Part shown: positions 1-50,933 of the stretch, piece after piece
How positions within the stretch are numbered: the first letter of the stretch is position 1
How the letters are laid out: each line of letters begins with the position of its first letter
Assembly (NCBI GenBank): GCA_032164295.1
Contig: JAJHTX010000013.1
Span: forward strand, 1,518,911 to 1,582,910
Direction: 5' to 3'
DNA: 64,000 nucleotides
Source of the DNA: Inonotus obliquus
Lineage: Eukaryota; Basidiomycota; Agaricomycetes; Hymenochaetales; Hymenochaetaceae
Program-made: the position numbers and the translations under genes
Notes under the pieces: generated by a model
Told to the model about the DNA's origin: nothing
The model's input: the letters and a program-made list of their open reading frames with translations, nothing else
Database searches by the model: none

Positions 1-308
1 GTGCTGAAGACTTCTATCGTTCGATGAGGCCAAGCAACAAGGTTCTGGAGGATGGTCATTTTACACTGGATGGTCGAGAAAGGCAACCAAGGCGACTCAT
101 GTCGTAAGCGGCATCGCCATCGTCGGCTGGCTAGATTCTTCTGAACAAGAAGGATTCACTGGTAGGCGTTCAAAAGGGTGCCGGGATTGTCTTAGCTACG
201 CCTTTCGTACTGGCTGGTGCCGTAACTTTCGGTGCAGGTACAATGGTTTATGTTGCTGGGAAGATATATGTCGGCCTCGGTCACATTTTGAAACGCGGAA
301 AACTTTGA
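1..308 (+). pseudogene. C-terminal fragment of an unknown protein, decayed paralog of the gene at 23280-24125
   Basis: Reading frame 3 encodes segments that align closely with the last third of the protein at 23280-24125: AEDFYRS, VLEDGHFTLDG, then LNKKDSLVGVQKGAGIVLA and a glycine/alanine-rich hydrophobic stretch ending VGLGHILKRGKL before the stop at 306-308. Between these conserved parts the frame has a stop at 105-107 and a short segment (HRHRRLARFF) that is readable only in another frame, so at least two indels or a very short odd intron separate the blocks. The 5' part lies outside the window. No function is known for the family. The hydrophobic C-terminus could be membrane-associated. 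It is most likely a pseudogene; a sequencing error in homopolymer-free sequence seems less likely. Confidence 0.6.
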
Positions 309-1657
309 TGAAATTGAAATGGTGTCCGAATCTCACCATGTACAGCTTGTAGATATGTTGATTCGTGATCATCACCCTATAGTCTACGTGATTTTTGAAT
401 GTGTTGGACCACCATTTTTCGCAGCCACCTTTTCTTACACTGTCTCAGCTCGTAGCTACTGTCCTGTCCCTACCTTTCTGGAATTTGATCCGACTGATAC
501 CATAAGTACTTATATCGCGAAATCGAATGCTAACATGACTCGCTCGAGCAGCACTTCTCATTTTTCTATTGATGAACCGGTCCCTTACGTAAGATGTGGA
601 TTAGCAGGACCATCATAGCGCACTGCACTGGCTGGCGCTATCACTCACTGTACACCAGCAACCAGCATCAGCAACATTGTATGAGATCGCAGCAACACAG
701 TGAAGCAGTGTCATGTCATAGTAGATTCAGATACGTCGTAGGTACTTCGAGATGAAATTACTGCTATCGAACAGCCTAAGATACAGGCGAGTGGCTACCA
801 TCGTTTCTTGTCCAATTCGATTTGCTGACGTGTTCATCCAGCGATGCATCTACCACTTAGCGTTGACCTCCGCTCACACGAACTCCATTATCAGCATGGG
901 ATCCATGGAATCAGCATAAGCGCTGCGTAGAAAATGCAACATGTGGATACTGGACGTATCACGAAAAGTGGCATTCGGCGAGAAAGGTTCGTGATGGGAG
1001 AATGGGAGAAGATGTACTTGAATGGTGATGCATCACACTGTTTCAAGACTTCGCTGTGTTGATTTGATGATTAGCTTTGGACACGATTGACGAGTTTGGG
1101 ATAATATTCCAATCTCAGGGACGTTCGATCATGGTCATGCTTCGACGACCTGTGCTGGCCATTTTGATGCGAGGAGACATCGTCGCGACCTACTTGGTGG
1201 CCCTAGATAAATGACGCCGTCCTGTAGCTTGGACCGCTCGATTTGTATTCGGGTTGGATCGTGGTACGAGTTTATCAATAATACGAGACAACTATCCGTG
1301 AAGGAAAAGAAAGAAAGATGGTAATGGCAATGGTTCCGAGTCCAAAAGCTGGGCGCAATCAGTCCGGTAAGCAAACACTCACGATTCCTTCTCATACCAT
1401 TCAGGTCAATTTCAAAACGCTGATAATCAATCAAAGTTACGAAACGATGCGAACACTGGTATTCAACCTGCTTTGGGTGTGGAAATATGAAAGGCTAAGG
1501 GAACTCGTTGCGATGTCTTACATATAGCGTTTCTCCCCCTTCCCGGCTCTTGAGAGCAGGATTCCCATTACCCGTTACCTATCTCCGTTTCCATCTTTAC
1601 ACCTCTTTCGCACCTCGTCCGCCACAGGTTGTGCATGACGCTATTCTCGACTCAGGT
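309..1657. other. Intergenic, no gene recognised
   Basis: Short ORFs here have no family features, consistent composition or splice logic. The 3' part is the presumed promoter of the DUF6533 gene. Confidence 0.5.
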
Positions 1658-3467
1658 ATGAGTGAACAGCCCACACCGTTGACTGTTGAAAGGTTATATG
1701 CGCTCCGGTACCTCACTAGTATGTTATCAACTCCTACCCACGCAAACGATGTTTGGGATAGGGCAATCAGAATCGTAACTGACCCTGCTCCGTCCTCACT
1801 TTCTTTCTTATCAGTTGCCGGGCTGACGGTACTTGTATACGATGCTCTGTTGACCTATAATGAGGAGCTGCGCTTCATATGGTCACCCATTTTAGGGAGA
1901 GTCAGACAGGGTGGGATTAGGAAGTTGAGGATTCCAAGACCGATTTTTCTGTACCTTATTGCGAGGTACTGTATGCTGGGTATTGGGTTGTTATATTTAT
2001 ATGGTGGGACATTGTCTTGCCTATACTGTTTAACGAATAATGACAAAGTCCCGTGTTTGTAGACCTCATTCCGTCAAGAGACCTCACGATCAATTGGGTA
2101 CGTTTCCTGCCTCTCGCCTCGGTAGTTCGGCGGAATTTTTCTGATATGAGTCGCTTTCCGCAGTACATAGCTTAGCCACTGCACTACTGGGAAGAGACTC
2201 AAATCACTTTCAGGTGTCAAGGATCCGCCGTATTCGTATTCTGTGTTGACGTTATCGTAGAAGTCCTCAGCTGCGGTTCGTTATTTCATCTCTTTTCGCG
2301 TGTAATTGTTATTTTACCACTAACGTGTTATCTAGGCGTTGTCCTTCATCAACTCTTTCAACTATGGCAATTTAGTCGCCTCATTTCCCGAATAGTCCTC
2401 GTTGTATTCTTCCTATCGAAAGTTGTCTTGTTCGCATTTGCGACTGCTGCTATCTTCTTGATAAAACGTGGGTACTCTCATACTTTCTTTCGGAGGTTAT
2501 TCTGTATTGGTAAACTTTTATTCTACGCGCAGAGCATATTACGTTCATGTCTGTGGGACATGTACGATTTTGTGGAGTTACTGATTCGTCGAGGTTATTT
2601 CTTGGAGTTTGGATCACCTGCGTAAGTACCAAGCTACTTTAAGCCAACCTCCCTTTAGTTTTACTCAATGATAATGATGGTATAGGTGACGTTTGACGTA
2701 TTTGCATTTGTTCTACTTTTGCTGAATGCATTGTCTAAACCGAGGTCGGAGAGTCAGAGGTTATTGAGAATCCTTTATGCGGACGGGGTTATTTTCTTTT
2801 TGGTACGTCTCCTGATTCTTTCTTTGGCAGGTTGTTGGATAATATGTATGCTCATTTCGGTTTATGCGACTTGTAGACCATTTTCAGTACGTTGAAGAGA
2901 TTACTCTCATGTTGAAGTGGCCTGATTGGATTATTGTATCAACTTGAAGCGATGAGATCAATGAATCTGATAATTAGCGCTGCTGCTCCGGTAAGTGTTA
3001 TTATTTATCGAGATGTTCTCGTGTTGACGATATGCTCTGTTGATATACCGCAATTCTCAGCCATCTATGATCATCTTGGCGATTGTGTAAGTACTTACCT
3101 ACCCTACCACATATCGCTCACCCACCCACCCACTAACCATCCATCCAACTCGTCTATTCACTCAAACAGATTCTCAGCATCAATGGTCTCAACAGTCGTC
3201 TCAAGATCTTTCTTACGTTTACAACAACGTCTCACCAGGGATCATGTTCGAACTGATTCGTCGCATAATGGGGATGAGTCATTCTTTGATGATGACGATA
3301 ATCTCATCTGGAACGGAGGACATGGAGAAGGGGAGGGAGGATACTCTTTGAAAAAGACGGATAAGGATAAAAGGGAAGGGAAGACGGCGGAGAAGAAGAG
3401 GATGGGCGGAAGTGGGAGTTTTGATGATAGTACGATGAAGAGTATGGCTTCTTCTAATGGGTGGTGA
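1658..3467 (+). CDS. DUF6533-type multi-pass membrane protein, multi-exon
   Basis: The start ATG at 1658 opens MSEQPTPLTVERLYALRYL and is followed by FLSVAGLTVLVYDALLTYN and EELRFIWSP, the hallmark N-terminus of the basidiomycete DUF6533 membrane family. Later exons keep the family order: a segment VLHQLFQLWQFSRLISRIV with a following hydrophobic helix (about 2336-2470), VTFDVFAFVLLLLNALSKPR and LLRILYADGVIFFL (2687-2802), then LEAMRSMNLIISAAAP (about 2943-2990). The last exon runs from about 3172 to the stop at 3467 and encodes a hydrophilic, charged tail (DESFFDDDDN, KTDKDKREGK). About seven transmembrane helices are expected. Introns of 50-100 nt with GTAAGT/GTACGT donors are visible at about 2623, 2803, 2992 and 3089; the exons between 2000 and 2330 are the least certain. 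The biochemical role of DUF6533 proteins is unknown. The gene converges on the ABC transporter downstream. Confidence 0.75.
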
Positions 3468-4126
3468 GATGCGCGTTAGTCTATTAGTCTGTCAGGGGTC
3501 GAGCCAGGAGTCAAGATGGCAAGAGTGAGAGTGGATCTAGTACTGTGCGTGTAGACTCAAGACATAGGACTTGGATACTCCACTCCCCATTAAGACGCTT
3601 CTGTATTCTGAGGATTCGATGGTTTGATCGAATATGCCTATGTATGTACTCGTGTACGTATGTACGTTACAATTCAGCAAATTGGTTTATTGATCGGGTG
3701 GAAGGACTTTGAAATGCAATCCAACAAATGCATGTATTTTGTCAATCATTGTTCCCACAACAAGGTTGATACTCGACGTTCGACACTCGACATAAGTCAT
3801 TCTATAACGATGATGGGAGAAGTTTTTTGATAGCGATAGCAAGAAAGCGATGACACAAACACAAAGACAGCACAAAAGACAAAACAAAAAGTCAGTGGCA
3901 AGATGACAAGAAAGACAGGGAGACGGTTCCGTCCTGTTTCCCTCTCCCTTGACTCTTCTTCGGTAACCGCCAAGCGCCACTATTCTGCGACGCGTAAGAC
4001 GGGAGAGCAGAGACGGGAGATTCGAGACGTGGACCGCAAAGCCCAGCCTTGTCTTAAGAAGCTCCACCTTCTCATTTACCTACTCTATCTCGATTCTCGC
4101 TCCTGCTCTTACAGTTGCACTCAATC
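3468..4126. other. Convergent intergenic region
   Basis: Lies between the 3' ends of the DUF6533 gene and the first ABC transporter. It should hold both 3' UTRs; no ORF here has coding character. Confidence 0.5.
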
Positions 4127-7100
4127 CTATGGCCCTTGATCCTTCCCCTTGCTCTGCACTCGACCTTGGGTACTCGCCTCCGCTTTCGCATTCGCAGCTT
4201 CCTCCAACTCCGTAAAGTTTCCGCTTTTCAAACACATCCCACGAAAAACTCCATCTTGTTTTTGTAAAAGGTTATATGGAGTATCGAATTCGACTATTTG
4301 ACCTTGATCGAGGACTAGCAGACGATCGTAGTCTATTACTGTTCGGAGACGGTGGGCGACTGGTGTAGTTGCGAGAGCGTGGTGGTAATTAGTAACGTGT
4401 TCCGGAGAAGATGTGAAGGAGAACGTACTTGTAAGCAACAAAGAATCACAGAACTCTTCTCTAATGGTTTGTTGGATCTTAGCATCAGTACTAAAATCAA
4501 TGCTGCTAGTCGCTTCATCCAGTATAACAACAGCGCTTCGACGTAATAAAGCACGAGCCATTGCTAGAAGTTGACGTTGACCTGCGCTAAAGTTGAGTCC
4601 ACCGGAAGAGACGGAAGTTGAAAGAGTTATCTTGGGTTGGTCGGACGTATTGACGGATGTGGATGAGACGGCGGTGGATTCGGAGAGAGAGCGGGATGGC
4701 GTGGGTGAGGGTGAGGAAGAGGAGGGTTGATTGATGGCCGTTGTGTCTGTTTCTTCACGTTCGATGTCACGAATGGATGGAGCGCGAGAGGAGCGACGCG
4801 AGACTAGGTTGCTCTCCGAGATCATTTGGACACGACGGAGTGCGTCGAGACATTCGAGGTCGGTGTAGTCACCGAAGGGGTCTAAATTATCACGGATCGT
4901 TCCTGAGAAGAGTGTAGCGTCCTTAAAGACCGGTTAGTCTGGAGTAGTCACATAGAGAGAGAAGACGAACCTGAGGGATGAAAGTGAGCCGTGAACGTAA
5001 ATCATTCACACCAATCGTCGCAATATCAACTCCATCAATAAAAATATGTCCTTGCGCAGGGTCCGTAAAGCGTAATAAACTCATAGCAAGGGTACTTTTC
5101 CCACTCCCAGTTCTTCCCAACAACCCAACCCGTTCTCTTGCACGTAGGGTGAACGAAACGTCATGAAGTACAGCAGGAAGATCGGGCGCATAGCGTATTA
5201 CGAGATCTTTTACTTCTACGAGTTTATTCTCGTTCGGTCCGGAGCTTGAAGGCCAATGTGCTGGAGGACGGGAATTTTGGATTATTGCTGGTGGTTCTTG
5301 TGGGAGGTCGAGGTATTCGACTATACGCTCGACGGAGTTGAGGTCTAGTTCGAGTTGTGTCCAGAAGCGGCATGTCCACTGCAAAACAAGGGACACGTAT
5401 TAGTGGACATGTTGTTCAGGAAAGGAGATGGGAGTACGCACGTAGATATTGTTCGTGAATTGCATCTATGCAAACATTCAGTACCGGCATATCAATCTAC
5501 GGGGACGTTCTACTCACAGCACTCGTAATACACAGCGCGGCCCATCCAGCACGTCCAGGTCGAGTAGCCGAGTCAGACGTAAGAGCAAACATAGTCGTTA
5601 CAAAGACAGCAAGAGCGCTCAAAAAGTCAAAACGCAGCAGTAGCCATCGGTTCGTCATCTACCCAAATATTTTATTAGAGCCTCCTTCCATGCAGTTCGA
5701 AGCAAGAGCACTTACCCTTGAAGCGGGATAGAAAGAAACAGAGGGGGGAATCGAGTCAGCATATGCCTCAAAAAGTCGGAAGAGGCAATGGAGCCCACCA
5801 GAAGTGATAAAACATCTGCAGTGTCAAGTCGATTCTATGATAGAGTCCATTCATGAACCGTGGTTCCGCAGAGAAGGCGCGAACAGTAACGACTGTCATT
5901 TGGAAAAAGTCCATAAGAATTGCGAGGTGAATCGATGAATGATTAGGATTACTTACTGCCTTCCAACAATTCCGCAAATCCAGAAACTGAGAAATGGCGA
6001 GTTAGTTAAACCATGAATGATACGTGAGAGTATGCGTCGGTGCTCACAAATAGGCGACCTAGTAGTACTTTCCATCCTACGTAAATCACGCCCTGTATTG
6101 AGGTACCCAATAGCCAACTTATAATAAAAATAGCCAATGAATACAGCAGGGAAGATGAAAGGAGGGAACACGGCGACGATAACAACAAGAGAAGTAAAGA
6201 AGGATGCAAGCGATTGGTTAACAGCTTGAAGTGAACTTGCGAGGTTAGTGTCGACAGTTTCTATATCTTTGCTGAAACGATTAAGGATACGTCCCGTTGG
6301 TGTCGTGTCTAACCAACGCATGGTGCATCGGGTAACGGTTTGTAATAGCCGACTGAAGAGGGTTCGAGATGCATAGAGTGCGCCGGTGTATTGTGTTGCG
6401 GAGGACGTGATTCCGACTACGACGGTGAACAATCCGATCAGAGCATATACAATGACATAGAAGAAGGGTCTCTCCTGAGCGGGAGGGAGGCGGTCTTCCA
6501 AGCCCATTGAGCTAAAGCTTTGATGTGCGTTTGGGTAGTGATGAGTCGAGAACGAATCGGGCAAGAGCGTGTGTTGTTCCAAAATGGTATTGGACGAGAA
6601 GGAATGTGTGAAGAGAGCCGATTCTCCTTTCCCGTAAGCTTCACCCCAGACCTAGAAGTGGTGAGTAGAGTGAAAGGTCAGAATTTCCGGGGCTAACCTT
6701 GATCCAATATTTTTCTATGAAGCCCAAGACTTGCACACAGACGATCAGGAAGACCAGAATAGCCCACGTCCAGTAAGACCTAGAAGGGATCCTTGAATAT
6801 CACATACAACAAGGACAGCTTGAGGAAACTCACGAAGCCTTCAAATACGTCTTATAAATTCTCCACTTCACACTACCTGTCTCCCGTTCTTCGTCTTTAA
6901 CAAGCTTACGAGGCTTTTTCGACTTTTTCTTATCGACTTCACCATTTGTATCACCAGCAACACCGACACCATTAGCTCCAGCTCCGGCTTCATCCTGAAT
7001 TGTCTTAGACGCCTCTTGCTCCTCGCCTTCATCCGCTTTTTGTTCATCTTCTCGACGCTCTTCGACGGCTTCTTCTACAGTGATTGCTTCGAGTATACCA

Positions 7101-13730: not shown

Positions 13731-16700
13731 TCATCGTCCACCAGTGCCTGACTGTGATGCAGTCTTCGCCTTCGCGGCCTCCTCAAGTTTTGAGAAGTTC
13801 CCACTTTTGATGCACATGTCGCGGAAGATTCCGCCTTCTTTCTGAAGTAGATTGAATGGTGAGTCGAGCTCTACGACGCGTCCTGCGTCTAGTACTATCA
13901 AGCGGTCGTAATCAATGATGGTGTCGAGACGATGTGCAACTAGAAAGCATTGTAATTCACTTTGGGGAAGACGGTACGAAGATTCTGATAACTCACTAGT
14001 AAGTAATAGGGAATCGTGGAACTCTTCCCTTATTGTTTGTTGAATCTTCTCGTCCGTCTCGAAATCGATACTGCTGGTCGCCTCGTCCAGGATAACTAGT
14101 GCACTACGACGTAACAGAGCACGTGCCATTGCGATCAACTGTCGCTGTCCAGCACTGAAGTTTGATCCTCCAACGGACACTCTCGTGTCTAGAGTGATCT
14201 TCATCTGCTCCTCGACTTTGCCGCTACTGTCATCTCCGACGAATGTTACGCTGGATGGTGAGGCTGGGACGGATCCCACCGCATCGGGGATATATTCAGT
14301 ACGCGCAATCAAGTCGTCATGCACGAAATTTCGAATCGACGGAGCGCAAGATGGATTACGTGATGTCAAGGTATCTTCTTCCGAGATCATCTGTACGCGC
14401 CGTAGAGCATCGAGGCACTCCAAGTCACTATGCTCGCTGAAGGGGTCTAAGTTGTCCCTAATTGTCCCGGAGAAAAGTACAGCATCCTGTTAAGGAAGTT
14501 AGTCATTCTCGGGGAGTTGTGTAACAATAGTACCAAGACAAACCTGCGGGATGAAAGTAACCCGTGAACGGAGGTCATTCACACCGATCGTCGCGATATC
14601 AATTCCGTCAATGATAATCTGACCCTGAGCGGGATCTGTAAAACGTAGTAAGCTCATTGCGAGCGTACTCTTCCCGCTTCCGGTTCTCCCCAGCAATCCA
14701 ACTCGTTCTCTGGCACGAAGGGCGAAAGATACATCGTGAATTACAGCGGGAAGGTCGGGTGCATAGCGCACTATGACATTTTTCACTTCCACCAGCTTGT
14801 CCTTATTCGTGCCTGAACTGGAGGGCCAATGTGCAGGGGGACGGGAGTTTTGGATGATTGCTGGTGGTTCTTGAGGGAGGTCGAGGTATTCGATAACGCG
14901 CTCAACGGAGTTAAGCTCGATCTCGAGGAAAGTCCAAAAACGACATGCCCACTGCGCAGAGTCATCATATACGAATCAAAAGGCAAGCTATGAAAACAAT
15001 GATCTTGTCACTCACAAAAATGTCCCCCGAAAGTTGCATCTGGTGACAGGATCAGTACTGGCTTCTTACTTGATAATTGACTCTCAACTTACCGCACTGG
15101 TGATACACAGGGCTGCCCACCCGGACCACCCAGGTCGATTAGTTGTTTGTGACGTGAGAGTGATTACAGTCGCAAGAAACACAGCAAGAGAGCTCAAACA
15201 ATCTGAGCGTAAGAGCAGCCACCGATTCGCATTCTATGGATACCAGCTTGAGACTGGCATATCCAGAGATAGATGACACCTACCCTTTAAGTGAAGAGAA
15301 GAAGTAGGAAGAGAATTGAGAATCAGAGTCAGAAAATAATAGGAACAGTCCGGAGAGACGATAGATAGGAAATACCAAAAGTGATTAAACATCTTCAAGT
15401 TCATATCTATTTTCCGGTAGATTCCATTCATGAAACGCGGTTCTGCAGAGAAGGCGCGTACAGTCACGACTGCAACGTAGGAAAAGCACGTCGGATTAGG
15501 ATACACAGGGCAAAAGTTTACTGTACTTACTGCCCTCAAGTAGCTCACCAAACTCGGAAACTGGCAAGGATGGCTCAACGAAAAGTTGCGAGAAACAGTT
15601 GGGTACTCACAAATAGGTGACCTTGTTGTACTCTCCATCCGACGAAGGTCACGACTAGTATTAAGATACGATACTGCGACCTTGGAATAGAAATAGCCAA
15701 TGAATGCTGCAGGGAGGATAAATTGCGGGAACACGGAAACAATGACGATGAGAGACGTGATGAGAGACGAGACGCTCTTGTTGACAGAAATAAACGAGAA
15801 GGGAAGATTGTTGTCGATGGCCTCGATATCCTTGCTGAAACGGTTGAGAACACGCCCCGTTGGGGTTGTATCTAACCAACGCATGGTACACCGGGTGACC
15901 GTTCGAAGTAATCGACTGAAGAGCGTCCGAGATGCATACAGGGTGCTCGTGTATTGCATTGCCATAAATGCAGCCCCAACTACAAGTGTTGTCATTCCGA
16001 TCATCGCGTAAATGCCGACGTAGAACAATGGTTTATCCTGAGCGGAAGGGACGCGGCCTTTGGGGTCGAGTCCAGGGCACGAGTATAAATGACACTCGGC
16101 TGAGTATACACTAGGCGTGAGTGCGTGTTGCTCTGAGAATAGAGTGTGAGGTAAGAGATAGATGGATAGGGTAGATATCCCTTCTGCATAGGCCTCGCCC
16201 CAGACCTAGAATAAAATTGAGTGAATAAAGTAGCAAAAATTGGTTCACTAGCCTTGATCCAATATTTATGGACGAAGCCCAATGCCTGCATACAAATGGT
16301 CAGGAATATTATGATTGCCCACGTCCAGTAAGCACTGGGGAAAGCTCTCAGTCCAGAAAGACATAAGTGGCAGAGGGACGATACTCACGAAGCCTCTAAA
16401 TAAGTTCTATAGATCTTCCATGAGACACTGCCCGTCTGCCGTCCTTCGTCCTTTACGAGCTTGCGCGACATCTTGGGGTCCCCCGCATCGACGTCACCCT
16501 TTGGTCTGCGAATCTTTTGAACAGTATTAGACGCATGCTGCTCTTGGTCTTCAATGAAGTCTTCAGCTGTATCCGCCAACGTATCGACTTTGAGTATGCC
16601 GCTCTTGCGCAGATCCTCCACCGTTCCCTGGACATTGATACGTCCATTGAGCATGCGAACTAAATAGAAGGCTCCAGGCAAAACGAGTTGAACGTGGTGA

Positions 16701-19700
16701 GTTACCAAGATCTTGGACATAGGTTAATGAATTACAACAATAGGACAAGGCGGAGTACTTACGACGGTACGATCCTTCATCAATGGACCCATCAAGAGTT
16801 TCTGGAACAGATGTCGGGCAGTATGGCTGTCCTGTTTTATGAGTCTGTGGTGAGCCTTAATGGAACGGAGAACGCTACTCAAAACTCACTACGGCGCTTA
16901 GCGGATCGTCCAAGAGCACAAACTTCGTTCTGGCATATACTGACCTTTACGTTAGTTAGCACGGGTTATACGCAACGGTATCAATGATTTCCGACCTCGC
17001 CAAGGCCACTCGAGCTTTCTGACCTCCACTTAGCGTCACACCGCGAACCCCAATCTCGGTCTCGTCACCATCTTCGAACATAGCAAGATCCTGTTTCAAT
17101 GCGCACGCATCCAACACAGAATCGTAGCGCTCGGGCTCGAAAGGGAATCCAAACAGAATGTTTTCCTTGATGGATCTGTGCTGGAGCCAGGGTGTTTGCG
17201 CAGCGTAAGAGATCGAGTGAGACAACCCGTTTTCGTATACGTGATGCGGGTCTTTAAGCATGAGGATCTTTCCTTCATTAAGCGTCATCTCTCCTAACAG
17301 CGCAAGCTGATGGATTATGAGGAATCAGGAAAGCTCCAATTGACGAAGATAAATTCGCTTACTAGGAGAGCAGTCTTACCGCTCGCTGTCGGACCAGTGA
17401 CTATGCTAAGAGCTCCATCTGGGAATATGACGGAGATATCGCGCAGCTCAAAGGTACGGTCTTGATCCATCTCGTTAACGCTCAGCGACACATCGGAGTC
17501 AATGATATCTGCTTCCCTATCCCATCCCGAACCTGCACTTCCTTTCGGTGTATCCTTGCTTTTACCCTCCTCTTCAACCGAATTCCACTTCAGTGAGGCA
17601 TTTTCCAGACCCAGGACCGTAACATCATTCGATTCATCCTGCTCGTCGCCTTTGATCGCTGATACCTGCGGTGGTACTTCGTCTTCGTCCAAGAAAGTCT
17701 CAATGCGCTGTAACGCAACACGAGCTTGAAGAATGTTTACTGTCCACGTCCTGTTAAGTAAGGGTAAAGGTTAGTACGAATAAACTAACTGACTTGACTT
17801 TATCTTACGGAATGACATTCATAGGCTTCCGCATCATGGAGAACAAAGCGATTGCGGGGAAAGCGACGCCGATCGTGAGCTCGTGTCCACGGACAACGTA
17901 CGCCAAGAACGAAAAAATGCTGACAAGGATCGGAGCGGTTGACCAGACAATATGGATCATAACCTTATTGGTCGCTTCTGGTCAAGTTTCCTAGTGATTA
18001 CCTCAGGCCGCAGTACAATAGGGAAATGACTCACTCTTGACCAACCATTCGAGCTCTTCTGCACGAGACACCTCCGTCCTATTGATCCATTGATCCTCCC
18101 AACCGAAGAACTTAATAAGCTTAAGTGCACCGAAGAGTTCATTAACGATACTCGTTCTCTTATCACGCGCCGCTAATAGACCCTTTGTTATGTGAACGGC
18201 TCTACGGGCAAAATAGTTGTTGATGGGCCAGACGAGAAGAATGACTATGATTCCTGCGAATGAAGAAATTCCGAGAAGCTGGTAAAGGAAGATGCATGCA
18301 ATACCGATTTCAAAAGGTGCCGCATACAAGTAGTACAAACCGTTTATCATCTACGAATGACTTGAGTTAGATGCTGGTCTTCGGTTGATGGAGACAGGTA
18401 CATACCATTGCGATACGATTGACATCTCCAGCCATCAGATTTACTATTTTTCCCACGTCGGCACCAGCTTTCAGTTTATCGCCCTTGCCGTGTTTCTTCG
18501 ATCCTTCTTCGCTCGTCTTCTTTTTATCCGGCCTATTCACTATGCCAGAAAAGTCCTTCCTCTTGAGAGCCTTGTTGTAAATCGCTGACGTGAGCTGCGA
18601 GCGAATGCGAACACTCGCCCGGCGACCGTGCCATAGATGCTGCACGTCGGCTTGCGTTTTGAGTACTTGAGAGACGAATAGAAGAATTGCATATAGGTAC
18701 GCGTGAGCGATGTCGGATGGCAGTCCAGTATCGATAGCATCAATGATAAGCTTGAGAAACAACGGTCCGAGATAGTTGCAGGCGACAGATGCAATTGTAC
18801 CAACGAAGTCTAGACTGAGAAGTATTAGTCTATTAGTCGCATATTACATTTCGGAGAAGCTGCACATACATGAGATCCCTCGAGTTCCCTATCCATATTT
18901 TCCAAAGTAGACTAGTGTTTTGATCAAGTGTGGAAAACTTTCGGAACATTGGCCTTGCTCGCATCGTAATGTTGAGATCCCATACACCATCCTCCTCCAG
19001 TGTCCCATTCGTTCCCTTCGCGATGAGAGGATCGATCCAGCTGACCGTTACCCAACTCCAGAGTGTGACATGGTCCTCAGGAGTAACACTGGCTTCACTC
19101 GAGACGCTTTCAACTGGTCCACTAAATGGTTGACTAAGGACGAGAACAACGAGGCTGGAAGGTATGACAACATTTACAACCAGACCAGCCAGGACAAGGG
19201 GTGCGGGTAATAAATCTCCATAGACTATATGATCAAAAGTGGCTCCTCCGAGCATGAAGAGAGACCCAGCTAGATGAAGAGCGTAAAGAGCAAAGAGATC
19301 GTATGGAGGCCCAGCAATTGGCTTGAGTACTGGAGCGAGAGTTGCATAAAGCCAAGTTATTGCGAAAACAACCGCGAGGATGGCTCCGCGAGCATCTCTG
19401 TACCGAATGGCGAGGTAGACGCCTGTTGCAATCCATGAGCCAGTCTCGATTAGACCACTTCCTATAAGGACGAATGTACGTCGTCGAGGAGGTCGCCTCC
19501 CGGATAGATCATTAGTAATAGTGCTCTTCGCTTTGCTATCATCATAGTCAAGTGCTCCGGCTTCAGCAAGGGTAAGGGAGTGTTGGAGTAGCGATGAAAT
19601 TCCTGGAAAGAGATGGGTAAATGAGAGGCGAAAGAGGAAGAAGAGGACAAGGATGAAGGGAGCAAGCCCGCCCCATGATGCCCTTACACAGGCATCCTGG

Positions 19701-20326: not shown

Positions 20327-20551
20327 CTAGTCTCCTCCGCCTCCATCCCCGCCTCCGTCTCCTCCCCCATTTCCTCCACCCCCATCCGCTCCTCCGCAAC
20401 AGCAGTCATCGTCAACATCACTAGTACTATCCAAATTTTCAGTGCAGTAACCGTAGTACTGAATCTCCCTTCTCCTTCGCTCGTATCTCATCTGGCGGGC
20501 TGCTTCCTCTTCTTGATCGTCGTTGTTGTTCTGCGATGGTGCGCATCCCAT
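20327..20551 (-). CDS. Small MGCxxS lipid-anchor protein with Gly/Asp-rich tail (member 1)
   Basis: A 74-residue ORF beginning MGCAPSQNNN. Gly2 with Ser6 fits the N-myristoyltransferase recognition pattern (MGxxxS), and Cys3 next to it is the usual palmitoylation site, so the product is predicted to be anchored to the cytosolic face of membranes. Residues 10-40 are charged (DQEEEAARQMRYERRRRE), followed by a Cys cluster DDDCCCGG and a tail of Gly with regularly spaced Asp ending GGGDGGGGD. No known domain is visible. It is one of four such genes in tandem on the minus strand. Support comes from recurrence of the N-terminus and tail in its neighbours rather than from length. I do not recognise the family. 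Confidence 0.62.
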   Translation of the reverse strand: MGCAPSQNNNDDQEEEAARQMRYERRRREIQYYGYCTENLDSTSDVDDDCCCGGADGGGGNGGGDGGGDGGGGD

Positions 20552-21003
20552 GCTATTTGTGAACGATTGCTAACCTGACCGCAAATTTCAGCACTTCCTC
20601 TTACCTATGAGAAAAAATAGTCGTATGCGAATCAACGTACGATGAGAATCAGAACGACTTCTGCCAATTCAGAGGACTGGTTTGGAAAACGGAATGCAAC
20701 AGAGGATTTGGTGAACCGCAATCCCGTAACCACACTCTCACTTATACTTTACAGCCTGAGCACCCTCCCGAATCCGTCTGATACAGTGCCTCACGAACGT
20801 TTGTCTCATTGAGAGTTGGATTGGTTGCGAGTGGTTGTACTTGGCAATCAAGGGTCCCTTCTATGACTCACTAGCCGACGATGCGCTCATCCCAGAGTTC
20901 ACGATCCGTCGTGATATGGACGGAAAGCAACCTATGGTGCGATCCTGGTTGATTCAGGTCCGTATCTAGTAAGTACTCACAACTTCGTCACTAACTATTG
21001 CAA
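20552..21003. other. Spacer between MGC members 1 and 2
   Basis: About 450 bp without coding signal; presumed promoter of member 1 and 3' flank of member 2. Confidence 0.4.
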
Positions 21004-21204
21004 CTATGCCTTCAGTCGTCTGAGCAGCACAACAGCCCACAAACACTCGACGTCGAAGCTTATATCGGATCCACGATCTCCTCTCCGATTCCTCTCCTCT
21101 TCTGTTGGTCGTTGGCTCTCCTCCTGCCCTCTGCCACCACATTGCTCTAGCTCATTTTGCTGCTCAAGATCCTCTTCAAAGAACTGAGAGGTTGAGCAAC
21201 CCAT
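21004..21204 (-). CDS. Small MGCxxS protein lacking the glycine-rich tail (member 2)
   Basis: A 66-residue ORF starting MGCSTSQFFEED. It has Gly2, Cys3 and Ser6 as in its neighbours, then an acidic and Gln/Glu-rich region (QQNELEQCGGRGQEE, PTEEERNRRGDRG). Unlike the other three it has no poly-Gly/Asp tail; it ends in a hydrophobic, unrelated C-terminus (ECLWAVVLLRRLKA). The tail may have been lost by deletion, or a 3' splice could restore one, but no glycine-rich reading frame follows downstream. It resembles member 1 in being acidic after the anchor. Function unknown. Confidence 0.5.
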   Translation of the reverse strand: MGCSTSQFFEEDLEQQNELEQCGGRGQEESQRPTEEERNRRGDRGSDISFDVECLWAVVLLRRLKA

Positions 21205-21661
21205 GCTCTGTTGAGTCTGGGAGTGGATTCTGTTGTTCTCGTCTTGGAATTTCTGTATGGATGTATTCAGCGTTTACAGCTGAAATGGGCGGGACTGAAG
21301 AGACCTGCGGTATGGTCTGATTCTACTCTCCCTCACATTCCTCTGGTAGGCGAATAAGGATTTCAGGTAGATATAGTATGTCCTTCGCAGGACTGACTCG
21401 CCCAAGGCCACTCTTGTCGAATCTCAGATTCACGTTGAAAATACACCGCGTACCTACTCCGGGTTAGATGATTTCGCGCTCGATTGTTTTAGTTCTTACA
21501 CCGTTTGCCTTCTGTCTCCGTTGCTGCATCACCATCAAATGGGAGAGATGCATTCGACAGGGGACTGTCTGGATTTCGTTATACAAGTCGCGGGTTTTCT
21601 AACTTATATATATATAACTCGGATTGAAAGGCAATATTAATGTTCCGATCACGCCGCGCAT
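21205..21661. other. Spacer between MGC members 2 and 3
   Basis: About 460 bp including a short TATATATATA run near 21607. No coding signal. Confidence 0.4.
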
Positions 21662-21886
21662 TCAGCAACCTCCATCTCCGCCACCTCCTCCTCCACCACC
21701 ACCACCGTCACCTCCGCCGCCTCCGCCTCCATCGCCGCCTCCCGAATGACCTCCTCCTCCGTCGCCTCCTGCAAAACCCCAACCAAACCCACCACCTGTA
21801 TCGGCACCACCATTGCCTCTAGAGCGTCGCTTATATGCTCCCGGGCGTGAACCTTGTGGAATAGCCTTGGACGATGTGCACCCCAT
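21662..21886 (-). CDS. Small MGCxxS lipid-anchor protein with Gly/Asp-rich tail (member 3)
   Basis: A 74-residue ORF starting MGCTSSKAIPQGSRPG. It carries the myristoylation pattern (G2, S6, K7) and a palmitoylatable Cys3. Residues 17-25 (AYKRRSRGN) are basic, which would add electrostatic membrane binding as in Src-family SH4 domains. The rest is almost pure glycine with spaced Asp, interrupted by FGWGF, ending GGDGGC. A GTAGAG/CAG arrangement just upstream could be a 5' UTR splice site. The plus-strand reading of the same stretch is proline/serine-rich and is taken as a shadow. Unknown family. Confidence 0.6.
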   Translation of the reverse strand: MGCTSSKAIPQGSRPGAYKRRSRGNGGADTGGGFGWGFAGGDGGGGHSGGGDGGGGGGGDGGGGGGGGGGDGGC

Positions 21887-22414
21887 AATATTCGCCGCAA
21901 TTAGTGCTGTTCGCCAATTCTCTACCTGAATGCGAGTTTTAGTCTCCCAGCGTGATTACTCAAAGAGAAATCGCACAAGTTACCAGACGTGCAGAAGAAG
22001 CTTAGAAGGCAGAAGCAGTACACAGTGGATCAAAGTGAGTTGTGAAAGAACTCGTGTCCAAGGGCGGTTTAAGTATTGCTCTTGGACAGCCATACATATC
22101 GTTTCTGATGATCTAAAGACACGAGGAAGGAAGAACTATTTGCGGCCGGGTAGAGCGCTGACCGCTGCATCGCTTCAATCCAGTCCTGTGACGTTGCGCG
22201 GGTATAGTTATTGATGATGATCCGACAAGCGTGGCGGTGCTTGGTCCTATTTGGTTATCTGAAATTTAAGATATAATACATCGAAGTTCGCTTCGGGTCG
22301 TGCCCAATGTTACTTTCGCGCAGCTTGTGTGGCTATGAATGCATGAATAGCTGTTTGAAATGATTTCTCGGAAAGATTGAATTGATTACACTTTTTTGCC
22401 CTTCAAATTCCTCG
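21887..22414. other. Spacer between MGC members 3 and 4
   Basis: About 530 bp without coding signal. Confidence 0.4.
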
Positions 22415-22783
22415 TCAGTCACCACCACCCCCGCCCCCGTCTCCCCCGCCCCCGTCTCCTCCTCCTCCGCCATCTCCCCCACATCCGTCTCCTCCATCAC
22501 CTCCGACTCGTCCCCCGTCACCTCCGTACCCTCCTCCATGTGCTCCCGTATAGCCAACCCCATATCCCACTGCGTAGGTTGTACTCCCACCACCTCCACC
22601 AGAGTAAGTAGTGCCGGTATAGGCAGCTGTTCTTTCGGTTTTCCTTTCCTCCGGATTCGCGGCCCTTAGTTGTGTATTCTGCCGAGCGGCTTGCTGGGGC
22701 GCCCTTGGGGGAGGCCATATAGCCCGCGAATGCGATAAAGGCTGAAGATGCTGTCGGCGACTCTTGGATGGAAAGCATCCCAT
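22415..22783 (-). CDS. MGCxxS lipid-anchor protein with long Gly/Asp-rich tail (member 4)
   Basis: The ATG at 22783 starts MGCFPSKSRRQ and gives 122 residues. I chose it over an in-frame ATG at 22873 because it restores the MGCxxSK N-terminus shared by the cluster; the upstream 30 codons would bury it. The anchor is followed by a basic/Pro/Gln region (WPPPRAPQQAARQNTQ), a Tyr-Gly segment (TYAVGYGVGYTG) and a tail of Gly triplets punctuated by Asp, ending GGGGGGD. Largest and most complex member. A Tyr/Gly region plus Gly/Asp repeats suggests an intrinsically disordered, possibly self-associating protein; this is inference. No enzymatic domain is visible. Confidence 0.62.
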   Translation of the reverse strand: MGCFPSKSRRQHLQPLSHSRAIWPPPRAPQQAARQNTQLRAANPEERKTERTAAYTGTTYSGGGGGSTTYAVGYGVGYTGAHGGGYGGDGGRVGGDGGDGCGGDGGGGGDGGGGDGGGGGGD

Positions 22784-23279
22784 TGTATCGCGAATAAAAG
22801 ACTTCCTGTGCAGCCTGGTAGGTAATGTTGTAGCAACAACGTGCTGAGTTACGTTACTTACAAGATAAGACACTTTGCTGAATGGATCAGAAGCCAGAGA
22901 TTTGCTGGAAGGACTACGACGGATTGTTACTCGAGTAAGTATATATCATCTCCTCCCGGTAGTTATTAGTCAGTACGAAAAATCTCTCAACTCAACTAGC
23001 ACAGCGTCGCCGCTGGACGTCAAGCGTTCCGTTCCTCATAGTTCGCCAGGTCTTACCGGCATGGTCCTTATCTGCCATAATTAGCAATCAGTGGCTGCGC
23101 CCAGATAACTCTTGGCAGAGCAGTTAAAACCTCCGGCAGGTAGGAATGTATCAATTAGCCAACCACGTTCGAAAACTATATTACCCCGCACAGGTGATAA
23201 CCAACTCAATTCTACGGATGTCACGAAACAAACGTTCCAACTGGCAGTGCAGCCGTTTCGCGCCTCAATATTGAGCATG
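22784..23279. other. Intergenic, no gene recognised
   Basis: Promoter region of MGC member 4 and 3' flank of the next gene. Nothing else seen. Confidence 0.4.
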
Positions 23280-24125
23280 TCAACGTAGTTTCCCGCATGT
23301 TAGGACATGACCGAGACCGACAACTATCTTCCCTGTTCCATAAACCATTGCGCCTGCACCGAAAGTCGCGGCACCAGCCAGTATGAAGGGCGTAGCTAAG
23401 ACAATCCCAACACCCTTAGAAAAGCCCACCAGGGGTGAATCCTTCTTGTTCGGAAGAAATCTCGCCAACCCACGACTGCGATGTCGCTCACGATGTGCAT
23501 CATGTAGGTCGCTCGTGAAGGAGCTTTCTCCACCGTCCAGTGCTATATGACCATCTTCCAGAACTCTGTCGCTGGACGAATTCAGCGAGCGAGAGAAGTC
23601 CTCGGCACGGCAAGCCCACTCGGCTTGGATGACCGGATCGGGGTGCATACGCGCAAGGCTATACGCCGTTGATGTCAGTTTGCTGGCCCGCGAATACGAT
23701 AGAAAGAAAGCATACAAGCGCATTCGTGCCTGAATAAGCTCTTCCAGGACGCGTACTTCACAATCGTTGTCCTTAGCTTCACGACCGGCGCACAATCCCG
23801 GTGCAATCAGTGCCAGAGTCGAATATTTGGATGCTCGACCTCTCGCAATTCGTAGGTTCGCAATATTCATCTGAAGTTCATGCAATGTCTCGTACCACTG
23901 CGCCTCGCTGAATGTCGGCGTCGCGTTACTAGCATTTGAGCCAATACATAATGGTGCAGTGGATGTCGATGGAGGCTGCGGTTCCGCTGGAACAGGAGCA
24001 TCCTTATTGTCGTTATCATGGAAAGAGTACTCATAGAGAGGTGGGCTAGTGGTATCAGAATCCATGCTTGTATCAAGGACAGGAGATGCGGCGCGAATGT
24101 CCTGAGGCTGTGAGAGAAGCGGCAT
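23280..24125 (-). CDS. Unknown single-exon protein with glycine-rich hydrophobic C-terminus
   Basis: One uninterrupted frame of 281 residues from the ATG at 24125. The N-terminal ~75 residues are low-complexity and Pro/Ser/Asp-rich (disordered). Residues ~80-190 form a predicted helical region (QWYETLHELQMNIANLRIAR, VRVLEELIQARMRLYAFFLS). The C-terminal ~50 residues hold FSKGVGIVLATPFILAGAAT followed by FGAGAMVYGTGKIVVGLGHV, a Gly/Ala-rich hydrophobic stretch that could insert in membranes as one or two helices. A decayed relative with the same C-terminus is at 1-308, so this is a gene family. I do not recognise it and see no catalytic motif. Confidence 0.72.
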   Translation of the reverse strand: MPLLSQPQDIRAASPVLDTSMDSDTTSPPLYEYSFHDNDNKDAPVPAEPQPPSTSTAPLCIGSNASNATPTFSEAQWYETLHELQMNIANLRIARGRASKYSTLALIAPGLCAGREAKDNDCEVRVLEELIQARMRLYAFFLSYSRASKLTSTAYSLARMHPDPVIQAEWACRAEDFSRSLNSSSDRVLEDGHIALDGGESSFTSDLHDAHRERHRSRGLARFLPNKKDSPLVGFSKGVGIVLATPFILAGAATFGAGAMVYGTGKIVVGLGHVLTCGKLR

Positions 24126-29580: not shown

Positions 29581-32090
29581 ATGTCCGAGCAGCACGATGC
29601 CAACAACATTCGACACAGCCGCCAGCAACACCAGCAGGACCAGGATCAGCACCATGACAGTCAAGCTTCCTCCTCTTCCTCTTCGTCCTCTCCACCCTCT
29701 TCCGACGAACTAGCAACTCCTGTTCCACCAACTCCTGGCTCACTTTCTTCTCCTACTGTCGACTCGCCGCTCCTTTCTACTCATCCTCCTTGGCTGCGTA
29801 CTTCTTCTTTCAGTTACATCAACTCCCCGCTCAACCCGAATGCACAATCCCTCCCGCGTTCTCGTCCCAGCAGTGCACGCATTTCTCGCCTCATGTCTGA
29901 GGAGGCGGCTGCATTTGGCTCTAATACGGGTAGTCACCGAGGCTCGATGTTGTTGTACAAGCTCGCGTCCGAGGATGATCAGGCACTTCAAGTTCCCCTG
30001 CCAAATCGTCGCTTTTCGTTCGGCTCAGGCTCAGACAGTGTCTTATCATTCGATGGAAAGTACCCCTCGGGCACACCGCGCGGCGTGATCCCTTACGTGT
30101 ATGACCCCGAGCTTGACGATAATAGTAAAGACGAGGACGAGGACGAATTGCATCGATTAGACGACCGCACACGACTCACTTGGTCTTGGCGAGGCCTGGC
30201 GAATTTCGGTCTCCTCTTTACCCTTATCATCGCCCTTCTCTGTCTTTTTATTCTTTATCCAGTTGTGTATTTTACCCTCAATAATGCTCGTCTCCTCGCT
30301 ATCGATAGCAACATTAACATCAACGCGACCGGTCAAAACCCTGTCCTTTTCCAAATGCCCCAGCTCGTTGACCCCGACACTCCCAAGGATGCAAGGAATA
30401 GAACCGGTTTCGACGGTAGGCAGTACACGCTCGTTTTCAGCGACGAGTTCAACAAGGATGGCCGAACGTTTTACCCTGGTGACGATCCATACTGGGAAGC
30501 GGTAGATCTATGGTATTGGGCAACAGGCGACCTTGGTGAGTCTTCCTCCGGTCTTTCGTCTAGTCGGTTTCTCACATGACCATTCTCGTCCTATCAGAAT
30601 GGTACGACCCTAAGAACGCCTTTACACGCGACGGAAACCTCGTCTTACTCGTCGAGCAAATTCTGGACCCCACCGAGAACCACGGCATGCAGTTCCGATC
30701 AGCGATGATACAGACTTGGAACAAGTTTTGCTTCACGAAAGGGTACATTGAAGTCAGGATGAGCTTGCCGGGGCCGGATGAAGAGACAGAAGGCTTTGTA
30801 AGTGTTCTATGTGCCCAGGATACATGACGTTTCTGATTGTTGCTACAGTGGCCCGGCGCGTGGACTATGGGCAACCTCGCCAGACCAGGATACGGCGGGT
30901 CCACGGACGGTGAGACAGAGTATACCTTCAGAATCTTTCCTACTCTAACCATCGGTGTTTCGCGTCAGGTGTCTGGCCATATTCGTATAATGAATGTGAC
31001 GTTGGCACGTTCCCGAATCAGACCTATGCAGATGGTTCTGGGCCTGCTGCAGCTCTACACACGGATCGAGGTCGCGATAGATATAACAATGAGTTGTCAT
31101 GGCTCTCCGGACAGAAGCTCTCGTAAGCGCATATTTCCTTCCCGCGTTTCCATCCACGTTCTTATTCATTCTACTCGCGTGCTGCATAGGTCTTGCACAT
31201 GTCCCGGAGAAGATCACCCGGGCCCAACTGTCGGCAAGGGTCGTGGTGCTCCTGAAATCGATATACTCGAGGCGCAAAAGAATAAGCTAGGACCTGGTGG
31301 AAAGACTTCGCAATCGGCTCAGTTTGCTCCCTTTTCAGCCGACTACCTCCACCAGAATAGCAGCACGGATGACTATATGATTTTCGACCCAGTAGTTACT
31401 CAACCGAATACATTCCTCGGTTCTGCTGTACAACAGTCGGTATCAGCATTGTCGGACTTGCCCTCAGATCTCTTCAACGGGTCGGGAGGAGTCCCAGCTG
31501 TCTTTGGTTTCGAATATTGGACTGATGAGAACCATCCGGAGGAAGGCTACATCCAATGGGTGGCAAGCGGAGTACCGTCGTGGCGCATGGGTGCAGGATC
31601 GATAATTGAAGACCCGCTTCCATTGGGCAGCGGAGTAGGTAGACGGTTGGTTTCTGAAGAGCCTATGGTGCGTAATTCTCCTTTCTTTTGATGCGACTGT
31701 TTTACAGTTTTTTTTCTTAGGCAATTATTCTCAACCTGGCTATCTCGGAATCATTTCAGGATGTCGTCTTGTCGACCATGACCTTCCCTAATGAAATGCA
31801 CATTGATTACGTGAGAGTTTACCAACGCGAAGGGGAGGAGAATATTGGTTGCTCGCCGCCGGGTTATCCAACCGTCGATTACATCAACAATCACCTTGAA
31901 GCTTATACGAGTATGCCATCATATTTCAGTCCTATGATCGGCATCTTACTAGCCTTTCCTTTCTCTAGACCCGAACTGGACTTCTTGGGAAGGAGCCGGA
32001 TACACGAAACCGAGGAATAGTTTGGTATGCCGCTCTTATTCCACAAGTCTATTCCATTTCTAATATGCTTCAAAGTATGATGGATGCTAA
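29581..32090 (+). CDS. KRE6: KRE6/SKN1-type beta-glucan synthesis-associated protein (GH16)
   Basis: Eight exons can be joined in frame: 29581-30535, 30598-30797, 30849-30909, 30969-31122, 31190-31667, 31721-31910, 31969-32024 and 32076-32090, giving 702 residues. The N-terminal ~200 residues are a cytosolic disordered region (poly-Ser, Pro/Ser). A single transmembrane helix follows (LLFTLIIALLCLFILYPVVY), making a type II membrane protein. The lumenal GH16-like domain contains LVFSDEFNKDGRTFYPGDDP, WPGAWTMGNLARPGYGG, the catalytic-type motif EIDILEAQ and IDYVRVYQ. The tiny last exon encodes YDGC before the stop, the usual family C-terminus. KRE6 and SKN1 act in the secretory pathway in beta-1,6-glucan assembly of the cell wall. 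Both acidic residues of the ExDxxE motif are intact. Confidence 0.95.
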
Positions 32091-34057: not shown

Positions 34058-34282
34058 ACCACGGCAGTGGTCTATAGCGCGATCTGTTGAATTTAGAAAC
34101 AAATATGTATAAAAAGTTCACGAGTAAGATATGGAAAAGTCCTGATCTTCTCAGTCGACTGTATAAGGATGACACTCTCAATCACGGAAATTGCGATGGG
34201 ATTGGAAGTGATTTCTCGTGTGATTTCAGCTCGTCTAACCCTGGAGATAATACAGTCTTTTTCACAGCCATTTGCAGAAGTA

Positions 34283-35516
34283 CAGTCACATGACAAAAGT
34301 TTTGTCACGTTCACATCACAATACAACCACTCTTTACCTTATACCACAACAACCACTGACTCAATCATGCCCAAACAACTTAGATCCTCTAACACTACTT
34401 CTGCTCAACGTGCTGCTATACTTAATCTTTTCCAAACTCAACTCCCTTGTGAGGAAATTGCAAAAGCCTTCAATTGCACTGTTCGTACTATACAGCGCAT
34501 TCTCAAGAACCATGCTAAGCGAGGCCATGTTGATGATCTACCCAGAAGCGGACATCCACACAAGATTGGTGACAGAGGGTCTTGTTATCTGCAGCGCTCC
34601 CTTGATGGCAACAGATGTCAAACACTTGCTAACATCACCCAAAATCTTAATGCTGGTGCACTCATACTCATTGCCTCCAGGACTGTCCAGAGGTCCATAC
34701 ATCGTAATTTGGGGATGTTCTCATGCCATGCATGCAAGAAACCATTTCTAACTGATGAACATAAGGAGAGGAGGCTGGAGTGGGGGGAGGCTGCAATTGA
34801 CCATCGAAAGGAGGAGTGATATAGGGTGATCTGGACAGATGAATTCTCAGTTGAGCTTGGAAAGCACTCAAAGGCTTCTCTGGTATAGTGTTGCACTGAA
34901 GAGGCATTTGATGAGAAGTGTTTGGCAGCTACTTTTAAGTCAGAAAGGACGAGTGTCATGGTTTGGGGGTTTATTGCATATAACAAGAAGGGTTCACTTA
35001 TATTCATCCCCAAGGACAGGAGGAAGGGTGTAGATTATGTTGATTTGGTTATGGCAGGACCTCTCTGGGACTTTTATGCAGAGCTGTATGAGGAGAGGAG
35101 GGTTGCAAAAGTGATGGAAGATGGGGCACCAGTTCACAGATGCAAGGTGGCACAAGAGTTTAGGAATATCAACTCAATAGAGAGGTTCCTCCACCCAGCT
35201 CAGTCACCAGACATGACCCCAATTGAACATGTTTGATATCTGATAAAAATTGCAATCAACAAGAGACCAGTCAGGCCTAGAAATAAGGAGGAGTTGAAGA
35301 GAGCACTTTTGGAGAAATGGGAAAAGATTGATATTAAAGTAATTAACAAACTCATAGATGACATGCCTAGACATGTTGAACAGTTAGTAGAGGTTAGGGG
35401 AGCATCTACTTAATACTAATTGGATAGATATTTAATTTGTTATGAAGTAATACAATTAAAAAGTCTACGGTACAAAGTGAAAAATGTGACATGATAAAAC
35501 TTTTGTCATGTAATTG
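34283..35516 (+). mobile_element. Tc1/mariner DNA transposon with terminal inverted repeats, degenerate
   Basis: A 1.23-kb element bounded by TA dinucleotides (34281-34282 and 35517-35518). The 28-bp inverted repeats at 34283-34310 and 35489-35516 share the core ACATGACAAAAGTTTT with four mismatches overall. Inside lies one transposase frame with three stops. TA target duplication and TIR layout are typical of Tc1/mariner. Confidence 0.88.
34367..35413 (+). pseudogene. Tc1/mariner transposase, inactivated by three in-frame stops
   Basis: One frame of 349 codons from the ATG at 34367 to TAA at 35413. The N-terminus has a helix-turn-helix typical of paired-like DNA binding (SAQRAAILNLFQ, EEIAKAFNCTVRTIQRILK). 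The catalytic domain shows IWTDEFSVELG (first Asp), KVMEDGAPVHR (second Asp) and SPDMTPIEHV (third acidic residue). Stops occur at 34817 (TGA), just before the first catalytic Asp, at about 34888 (TAG), and at about 35234 (TGA), where the family usually has Trp after the PIE(N/H)V motif. No frameshift is needed, so decay is by point mutation only and still moderate. Confidence 0.88.
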
Positions 35517-41238: not shown

Positions 41239-41453
41239 CTGGTCCCGTTCATTCAAGTACCGACCTGTACCGACATTTTTCCTATGGTACCGACCCTCTT
41301 GATTCTAGACAAGAACACATTCCCCCCAACATCTAGCTGGTCCAGCACCTCTTTCTATTATTCCTTTGACTCCTCTTACATCCCCCTACTACAGACAACA
41401 AGTACCATGAGCGTACTGGATAAGTACTGCCTCATTTGGCCCTCCCCATTTTC

Positions 41454-45348: not shown

Positions 45349-45361
45349 TCACCCCCCCCTT
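45349..45361 (-). other. Polypurine tract
   Basis: On the minus strand AAGGGGGGGGTGA lies directly before the 3' LTR. The final TGA is also the stop codon of pol, so coding sequence runs right up to the LTR. Confidence 0.85.
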
Positions 45362-50932: not shown

Positions 50933-50933
50933 A

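What the first reader, a model, noticed from the sequence alone, without database searches (positions are those of the whole stretch)
20327..22783. Cluster of four small proteins sharing an MGCxxS dual-acylation N-terminus and, in three, Gly/Asp-rich tails
Four consecutive minus-strand ORFs spaced ~450-530 bp each start MGC with Ser at position 6 (MGCAPSQ, MGCSTSQ, MGCTSSK, MGCFPSK). Gly2 plus Ser6 is the known myristoylation rule and Cys3 the usual palmitoylation site. Past this the sequences diverge: two have basic residues after the anchor, two are acidic; three end in Gly runs punctuated by Asp. Conservation of only the anchor and tail suggests the membrane tether and the disordered tail are the functional parts. 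I know no described family with this layout; a fungal membrane-coat, scaffold or signalling adaptor role is possible.
Basis: partly seen in the sequence, partly recalled or inferred. Interest (0 to 1): 0.78.

Follow-up and report, generated by a model that had tools for sequence, protein, structure and literature searches.

The report
Fungal lipid-anchored glycine-tailed protein cluster
Near a chromosome end of a mushroom-type fungus sits a small family of neighbouring genes whose short, probably unstructured proteins start with a signal for two fatty-acid anchors and mostly end in long glycine tails; the family looks real and possibly new, but what it does is not known.

Summary
The four ORFs are real and not chance. 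The start MGCxxS[K/Q] occurs 4 times in the window against 0.02 expected; a slightly narrower form occurs at 7 places in the 36-Mb genome, 6 of them within 27 kb here. The cluster therefore has six members: two more (159 and 160 aa, MGCFPSKA..., glycine tails) lie just left of the window. Gene 4 and these two share promoters and cores and show purifying selection. Genes 1-3 share a second block behind the anchor. All six ATGs have A at -3 and G at +4. Gene 2 has no glycine tail and is the weakest member. MGCxxS is a published dual-acylation consensus (PMC8494787, passages). Best reading: a subtelomeric, locally expanded, perhaps lineage-specific family of dual-lipidated, mostly disordered proteins tethered to the inner face of a membrane as scaffolds or adaptors. 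The layout resembles the Leishmania HASP locus, without tested sequence kinship. No homologue was found, but fungal coverage of the database is thin. Expression, acylation and function are untested.

The parts
20327..20551 (-). g1, 74 aa, MGCAPSQ start, basic stretch RYERRRRE, CCC, Gly/Asp tail
   Evidence: genome search found only itself
21004..21204 (-). g2, 66 aa, MGCSTSQ start, acidic/mixed, no Gly tail; weakest member
   Evidence: genome search found only itself
21662..21886 (-). g3, 74 aa, MGCTSSK start, basic stretch, Gly/Asp tail ending DGGC
22415..22783 (-). g4, 122 aa, MGCFPSK start, Gly/Asp tail; paralogue of g5 and g6, which lie left of the window (window -4048..-3569 and -1716..-1234, plus strand)
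22784..23053 (-). promoter and leader of g4, shared with g5 and g6; TATATACT 162 nt before the ATG
   Evidence: self-blastn 76% to g5 and 73% to g6; 187 of 252 and 191 of 253 aligned positions identical
23280..24125 (-). GZ, neighbouring 281-aa open frame (SPPLY near its start, glycine-rich hydrophobic end), co-duplicated with the g4-g6 genes; membership in the system uncertain

Best explanation
A subtelomeric, locally expanded gene family (six members in 27 kb, four in the window) encodes short, mostly disordered proteins that are most likely N-myristoylated on Gly2 and S-acylated on Cys3 and so held on the cytoplasmic face of a membrane, probably the plasma membrane. The charged stretch behind the anchor tunes membrane binding; the Gly/Asp tail, where present, is a flexible low-complexity arm that gathers partners or crowds the membrane. 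They would act as scaffolds or adaptors, not enzymes. Shown: the ORFs and starts, paralogy of g4-g6, purifying selection among g4-g6, a shared block in g1-g3, and confinement of the MGCxxS-plus-Gly-tail layout to this locus as far as this genome was searched. Inferred: acylation, membrane, disorder in the cell, scaffold role.
For: Start motif clustered far beyond chance; A at -3 and G at +4 in 6 of 6; no upstream in-frame ATG before a stop in 6 of 6; promoter homology g4-g5-g6; pS/pN 0.284/0.145 for g5-g6 up to residues 125/124, 0.380/0.156 whole, 0.634/0.349 g4-g6, 0.681/0.343 g4-g5, bootstraps with pN>=pS 0.002, 0.000, 0.000, 0.000 of 500; block shared by g1-g3 (0 of 300 shuffles of either kind); five of the 7 Gly-rich frames in 104 kb are MGC ORFs; MGCxxS named as dual-acylation consensus, and SOS3 (MGCSVSK...) expressed in yeast needed Gly2 for plasma-membrane recruitment (PMC8494787, passages); all six on the disordered side of the charge-hydropathy boundary.
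Against: No transcript or protein evidence. In the SOS3 yeast assay C3A had little effect, so the role of Cys3 is not given. g1-g3 show no upstream homology and no link above shuffles to g4-g6 outside anchor and tail, so one common origin is unproven; their shared block was found by looking first, which flatters the shuffle result, and the g1-g2 pair alone is weak (220 of 5000 shuffles). g2 has no tail and a plus-strand open frame with splice-like signals reaches into it. g5 has an out-of-frame ATG 44 nt before its start. g6's tail shows slippage. Protein-guided alignments are uncertain in tails and in g4.
Confidence: 0.6

Rival explanations
1. HASP-like exported proteins: the dual-acyl anchor brings them to the plasma membrane and on to its outer face, where the hydrophilic tails act at the hyphal surface.
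For: Same layout as the Leishmania HASP locus: dual-acylated start, variable hydrophilic repeats, one kind without repeats, several genes together (PMC3491706 and PMC3015063, passages). Subtelomeric position and fast divergence.
Against: No sequence kinship tested or expected; nothing in the sequence shows export; the default place of such anchors is the inner face.
Confidence: 0.1
2. Partners of the neighbouring GZ protein: the MGC protein and GZ form a membrane module that was duplicated as a pair.
For: GZ copies alternate with g5 and g6 and stand beside g4; GZ has a glycine-rich hydrophobic end and an SPPxY near its start, also in the C12 relative.
Against: The left GZ copies carry stop codons while g5 and g6 are open; the C12 relative has no MGCxxS gene in the 30 kb read. 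Co-duplication explains the linkage. GZ fold unknown (pLDDT 43).
Confidence: 0.08
3. Not functional proteins, at least for g1-g3: chance or decaying ORFs kept open by G-rich repeats, with only g4-g6 being recent genes.
For: No homologue found for g1 or g2 in the genome; selection was measured only among g4-g6; g2 lacks a tail; antisense open frame over the g1-g2 gap; tail slippage in g6.
Against: Four MGCxxS[K/Q] starts in 2.5 kb against 0.02 expected per 64 kb; A at -3 and G at +4 in all; shared block g1-g3.
Confidence: 0.15
4. The tail is the working part: Asp-spaced glycine runs bind calcium or nucleic acid, and the anchor only places them.
For: Asp at intervals in the tails of g1, g3 and g4.
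Against: Few Asp in the tails of g5 and g6, no tail in g2; no Pfam match at its cut-off.
Confidence: 0.05

Closest known systems
Leishmania HASP family (HASPA/HASPB, cDNA16 locus)
   Same: Dual-acylated N-terminus, hydrophilic variable repeats, one kind lacking repeats, several genes at one locus (PMC3491706, PMC3015063, passages); HASPA and HASPB used as disordered reference proteins (PMC10409736, passages).
   Different: Kinetoplastid-specific; different start and repeat sequence (recalled; no sequence compared here); surface exposure shown there, untested here.
Plant CBL calcium sensors (CBL1, SOS3/CBL4) and ARA6-type RABs
   Same: MGCxxS dual-acylation start (PMC8494787, passages; listing).
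   Different: They carry EF-hand or GTPase domains (recalled); the proteins here have no Pfam domain at its cut-off.
SH4-type anchors of Src-family kinases, yeast Vac8, G-alpha subunits
   Same: N-terminal myristoyl plus palmitoyl tether (Src family and Vac8 as described in PMC3491706; G-alpha recalled).
   Different: They anchor folded domains; here the anchor is followed by disordered sequence only.
Disordered septal-pore proteins of filamentous ascomycetes
   Same: Disordered fungal proteins gathered at a membrane site (PMC10023807, passages and a title in its reference list).
   Different: 'myristoyl' does not occur in that paper's main text; no sequence comparison was made.

Membership tests
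MGCxxS dual-acylated proteins (signal class) | Start MGC with Ser at position 6 | tested here: met
   6 of 6 members
MGCxxS dual-acylated proteins (signal class) | Myristate on Gly2 and palmitate on Cys3 in the cell | not testable with these tools
   needs labelling
CBL / G-alpha / RAB / Src-type proteins | The family's folded domain | tested here: not met
   Pfam: g2-g4 no match at E<=1; g1 one match below cut-off (Conotoxin, E 0.73); g5, g6 none at E<=0.1
HASP family | Dual-acylation start, hydrophilic repeats, gene cluster | tested here: met
   As layout only
HASP family | Sequence kinship with HASPs | not tested
   no HASP sequence was fetched
HASP family | Exposure on the outer face | not testable with these tools
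   needs cells
One family comprising g1-g6 | Similarity beyond anchor and tail | tested here: inconclusive
   Yes within g4-g6 (0 of 500 shuffles, all three pairs) and within g1-g3 (0 of 300); between the groups 60 to 495 of 500 shuffles reach the score (9 pairs)

The most novel reading that the evidence does not exclude
A fungal counterpart, independently invented, of the Leishmania HASP system: a subtelomeric, fast-evolving set of dual-acylated, glycine-tailed proteins that coats the plasma membrane or is displayed at the hyphal surface and differs between strains, perhaps in self/non-self or environmental recognition.
Probability: 0.1. Interest if true: 0.75.

Novelty: new variant of a known kind. 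Interest (0 to 1): 0.42.

Why it matters
If the proteins are made and acylated, this is an orphan fungal family in which the membrane anchor is almost the only fixed part, expanded by local duplication near a chromosome end. It would show how new membrane-tethered disordered proteins arise from an anchor plus low-complexity sequence, and would give a small test case (Gly2 change, tail removal) for what such tails do at membranes. The likeness to the HASP locus would be a case of independent invention.

Tried and rejected
Homologues: protein searches with g6 (residues 1-112; 21 candidates, none at E<=10) and g1 (residues 1-54; no candidate) found nothing; g2-g5 were not searched there. A control search with the window's ABC-transporter exon found 7 proteins, one with an organism name (Mycena sanguinolenta, 50% identity), so fungal coverage is thin and absence is weak evidence. 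One viral-contig scan with g6: 142 pattern matches, no relative. Own-genome searches: g6 (residues 1-124) found g5 and itself plus a weak C11 match (E 2.3), and did not find g4; g1 and g2 found only themselves; g3 and g4 were not searched as proteins.

Other Gly/Asp tails: 21 places code GGGDGGG; 9 are in this cluster; in the other 12 (all 12 read) the open frame holds no MGC start. The tool warns that its DNA search skips simple repeats, and introns were not modelled.

Other MGC starts: of the 108 places, 8 were fetched and read as loci of that call; the 1 outside the cluster and the 6 were read too. None of these 15 showed a Gly-tailed ORF, but a gene with an early intron would be missed.

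GZ partner idea lowered: left copies have stops (some could be introns), and the C12 relative has no MGCxxS gene nearby. AlphaFold on the GZ protein from one sequence was useless (pLDDT 43.1, pTM 0.24), so no fold search was made. GZ's best Pfam match (DUF6845, E 0.23) is below cut-off.

A 5' leader intron in g4-g6 (GTAAGT, GTACGT, GTAAGT at 78, 71, 82 nt before the ATG) is possible but unproven; g1 also has GTACGT at 89.

Papers: 'MGCxxS' is in 18 papers; the 10 listed are on plant or algal proteins by title. Listings (14 of 14; 15 of 92; 2 of 2; 8 of 44; 8 of 158) show no title describing this layout. Only listings were seen there, so this does not show that it is not in print. One search used a plant motif that I recalled as a search term; it had 0 occurrences in the 8 papers listed.

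Full report
WHAT IS THERE. The four minus-strand ORFs exist as described: g1 20327-20551 (74 aa), g2 21004-21204 (66 aa), g3 21662-21886 (74 aa), g4 22415-22783 (122 aa), starting MGCAPSQ, MGCSTSQ, MGCTSSK and MGCFPSK. g1, g3 and g4 end in Gly/Asp tails; g2 does not. The window is C13:1518911-1582910 of an assembly of 36.07 Mb in 30 contigs. C13 ends where the window ends, in GGTTAG-type repeats from 63851 on, so the cluster is subtelomeric, 41-44 kb from the contig end. The organism is probably an agaricomycete: the only hit with an organism name for the neighbouring ABC-transporter exon is Mycena sanguinolenta, 50% identity.

CHANCE. ATGGGNTGYNNNNNNTCNMAR (MGCxxS followed by K or Q) matches 4 times in the window, exactly at the four starts; 100 dinucleotide shuffles give 0.02 on average and 0 reach 4. 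The pattern was written after seeing the starts; the genome count is the more independent test. The version with residue 5 = S/P/T/A matches 7 times in the genome (reversed control 2), 6 of them within C13:1514862-1541693. The AGY-serine version matches 6 times, all elsewhere (control 2). Loose MGCxxS matches 108 times against 67 for its control, so the loose form alone would mean little.

TWO MORE MEMBERS. Left of the window, on the plus strand, lie g5 (C13:1514862, window -4048, 159 aa) and g6 (C13:1517194, window -1716, 160 aa). Both begin MGCFPSKARQNPQPSP and have Gly tails. Within 104 kb of C13, 7 stop-free frames hold at least 11 Gly in 24 residues: five are the tailed MGC ORFs, one an RGG-like ORF, one telomere repeat. 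Of 21 places in the genome coding GGGDGGG, 9 are in this cluster; the other 12 are in frames without an MGC start.

ARE THEY GENES? All six ATGs have A at -3 and G at +4 and none has an upstream in-frame ATG before a stop; g5 does have an out-of-frame ATG 44 nt upstream. g4, g5 and g6 are paralogues: their 270 nt upstream align at 158 of 249 (g5-g6), 187 of 252 (g4-g5) and 191 of 253 (g4-g6) identical positions, with TATATA at 162, 151 and 155 nt before the ATG. Nei-Gojobori counts give pS/pN 0.284/0.145 for g5-g6 up to residues 125/124, 0.380/0.156 whole, 0.634/0.349 for g4-g6 and 0.681/0.343 for g4-g5; the shares of 500 bootstraps with pN>=pS are 0.002, 0.000, 0.000 and 0.000. These rest on protein-guided alignments, uncertain in the tails and in g4. 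A protein search of the genome with g6 did not pick up g4, so g4 is a distant paralogue. Gly codons are mixed in g1, g3, g4 and g5, but g6 has 19 identical codons in a row, a sign of slippage.

g1-g3 show no upstream match to each other or to g4-g6 beyond 11-12 nt. They share a second block: EEAARQMRYERRRR / EESQRPTEEERNRR / PQGSRPGAYKRRSR (none of 300 residue shuffles and none of 300 block shuffles is as good; pairwise 220, 39 and 3 of 5000 shuffles for g1-g2, g1-g3, g2-g3). The block was noticed before it was tested, which flatters the result. Between the two groups 60 to 495 of 500 shuffles reach the observed score (9 pairs), so descent of all six from one gene is suggested by position and layout but not proven. 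g2 is the weakest member: no tail, and a plus-strand open frame (20760-20966) followed by splice-like signals reaches into it; that frame is unique in the genome and matches no Pfam family.

HOW IT MAY WORK. MGCxxS is described as the dual-acylation consensus of plant CBL proteins; SOS3 starts MGCSVSK, and in a yeast assay G2A abolished its plasma-membrane recruitment while C3A had little effect (PMC8494787, passages). By this rule the six proteins should be myristoylated, and probably S-acylated, in a fungus; this is inference. No Pfam domain reaches its cut-off in any of the six, and all lie on the disordered side of the charge-hydropathy boundary, g3 only just. I therefore favour a membrane-tethered flexible scaffold or adaptor. 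The nearest parallel in layout is the Leishmania HASP locus: dual-acylated hydrophilic proteins with variable repeats, one kind without repeats, several genes together (PMC3491706 and PMC3015063, passages; PMC2946902, abstract start in a listing). HASPA and HASPB serve as disordered references in CD work (PMC10409736, passages). No sequence kinship was tested.

NEIGHBOURS. Beside g4 lies a 281-aa open frame (23280-24125, minus), here called GZ, with SPPLY near its start and a glycine-rich hydrophobic end. Copies at window -525..305, -2716..-2316 and -5841..-5140 alternate with g5 and g6 but carry stop codons. A relative on C12 (271171-272136, minus) is open and has SPPRY, but no MGCxxS gene lies in the 30 kb read around it. 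The linkage may be mere co-duplication. Telomere-adjacent clustering of lineage-specific genes with HET-domain genes is reported for Neurospora (PMC10684091, abstract); that is a hint only, and HET genes were not looked for here.

LIMITS. No fungal genome besides this one could be searched and the protein database holds few fungi; no transcripts were available; acylation and function are untested. Verdict: a real, local, possibly lineage-specific family with a known type of anchor, an unusual layout and no demonstrated function.

Noticed in passing
20760-21015 (+): A 69-codon plus-strand open frame without ATG (APSRIRL...WLIQVRI), followed by GTAAGT...CTAAC...CAG (20969-21015, read by eye) and running antisense into g2; unique in the genome, no Pfam match.
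   Followed up: partly
23280-24125 (-), and window -5841..305: GZ gene with SPPxY and a glycine-rich hydrophobic end; three left-hand copies carry stops; one open relative on C12.
   Followed up: partly
4770-9598 and 14332-19054: A 4.9-kb stretch present twice at 67% identity, holding ABC-transporter-like exons in tandem.
   Followed up: no
44896-51384: Ty3-type retrotransposon (gag and reverse transcriptase by Pfam) between two 453-nt direct repeats that are 100% identical, so probably a recent insertion.
   Followed up: no
34169-34819 (+): Transposase-like ORF with HTH_Tnp_Tc3_2 and HTH_23 matches.
   Followed up: no
29581-30579 (+): Exon of an SKN1/KRE6-type beta-glucan synthesis protein (E 6e-38).
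   Followed up: no
63851-64000: Telomere-type repeats mixing TTAGGG with TTAGGC at the contig end.
   Followed up: no
39012-41242: Repeats 86-90% identical, in inverted copies here and again about 38 kb left of the window.
   Followed up: no
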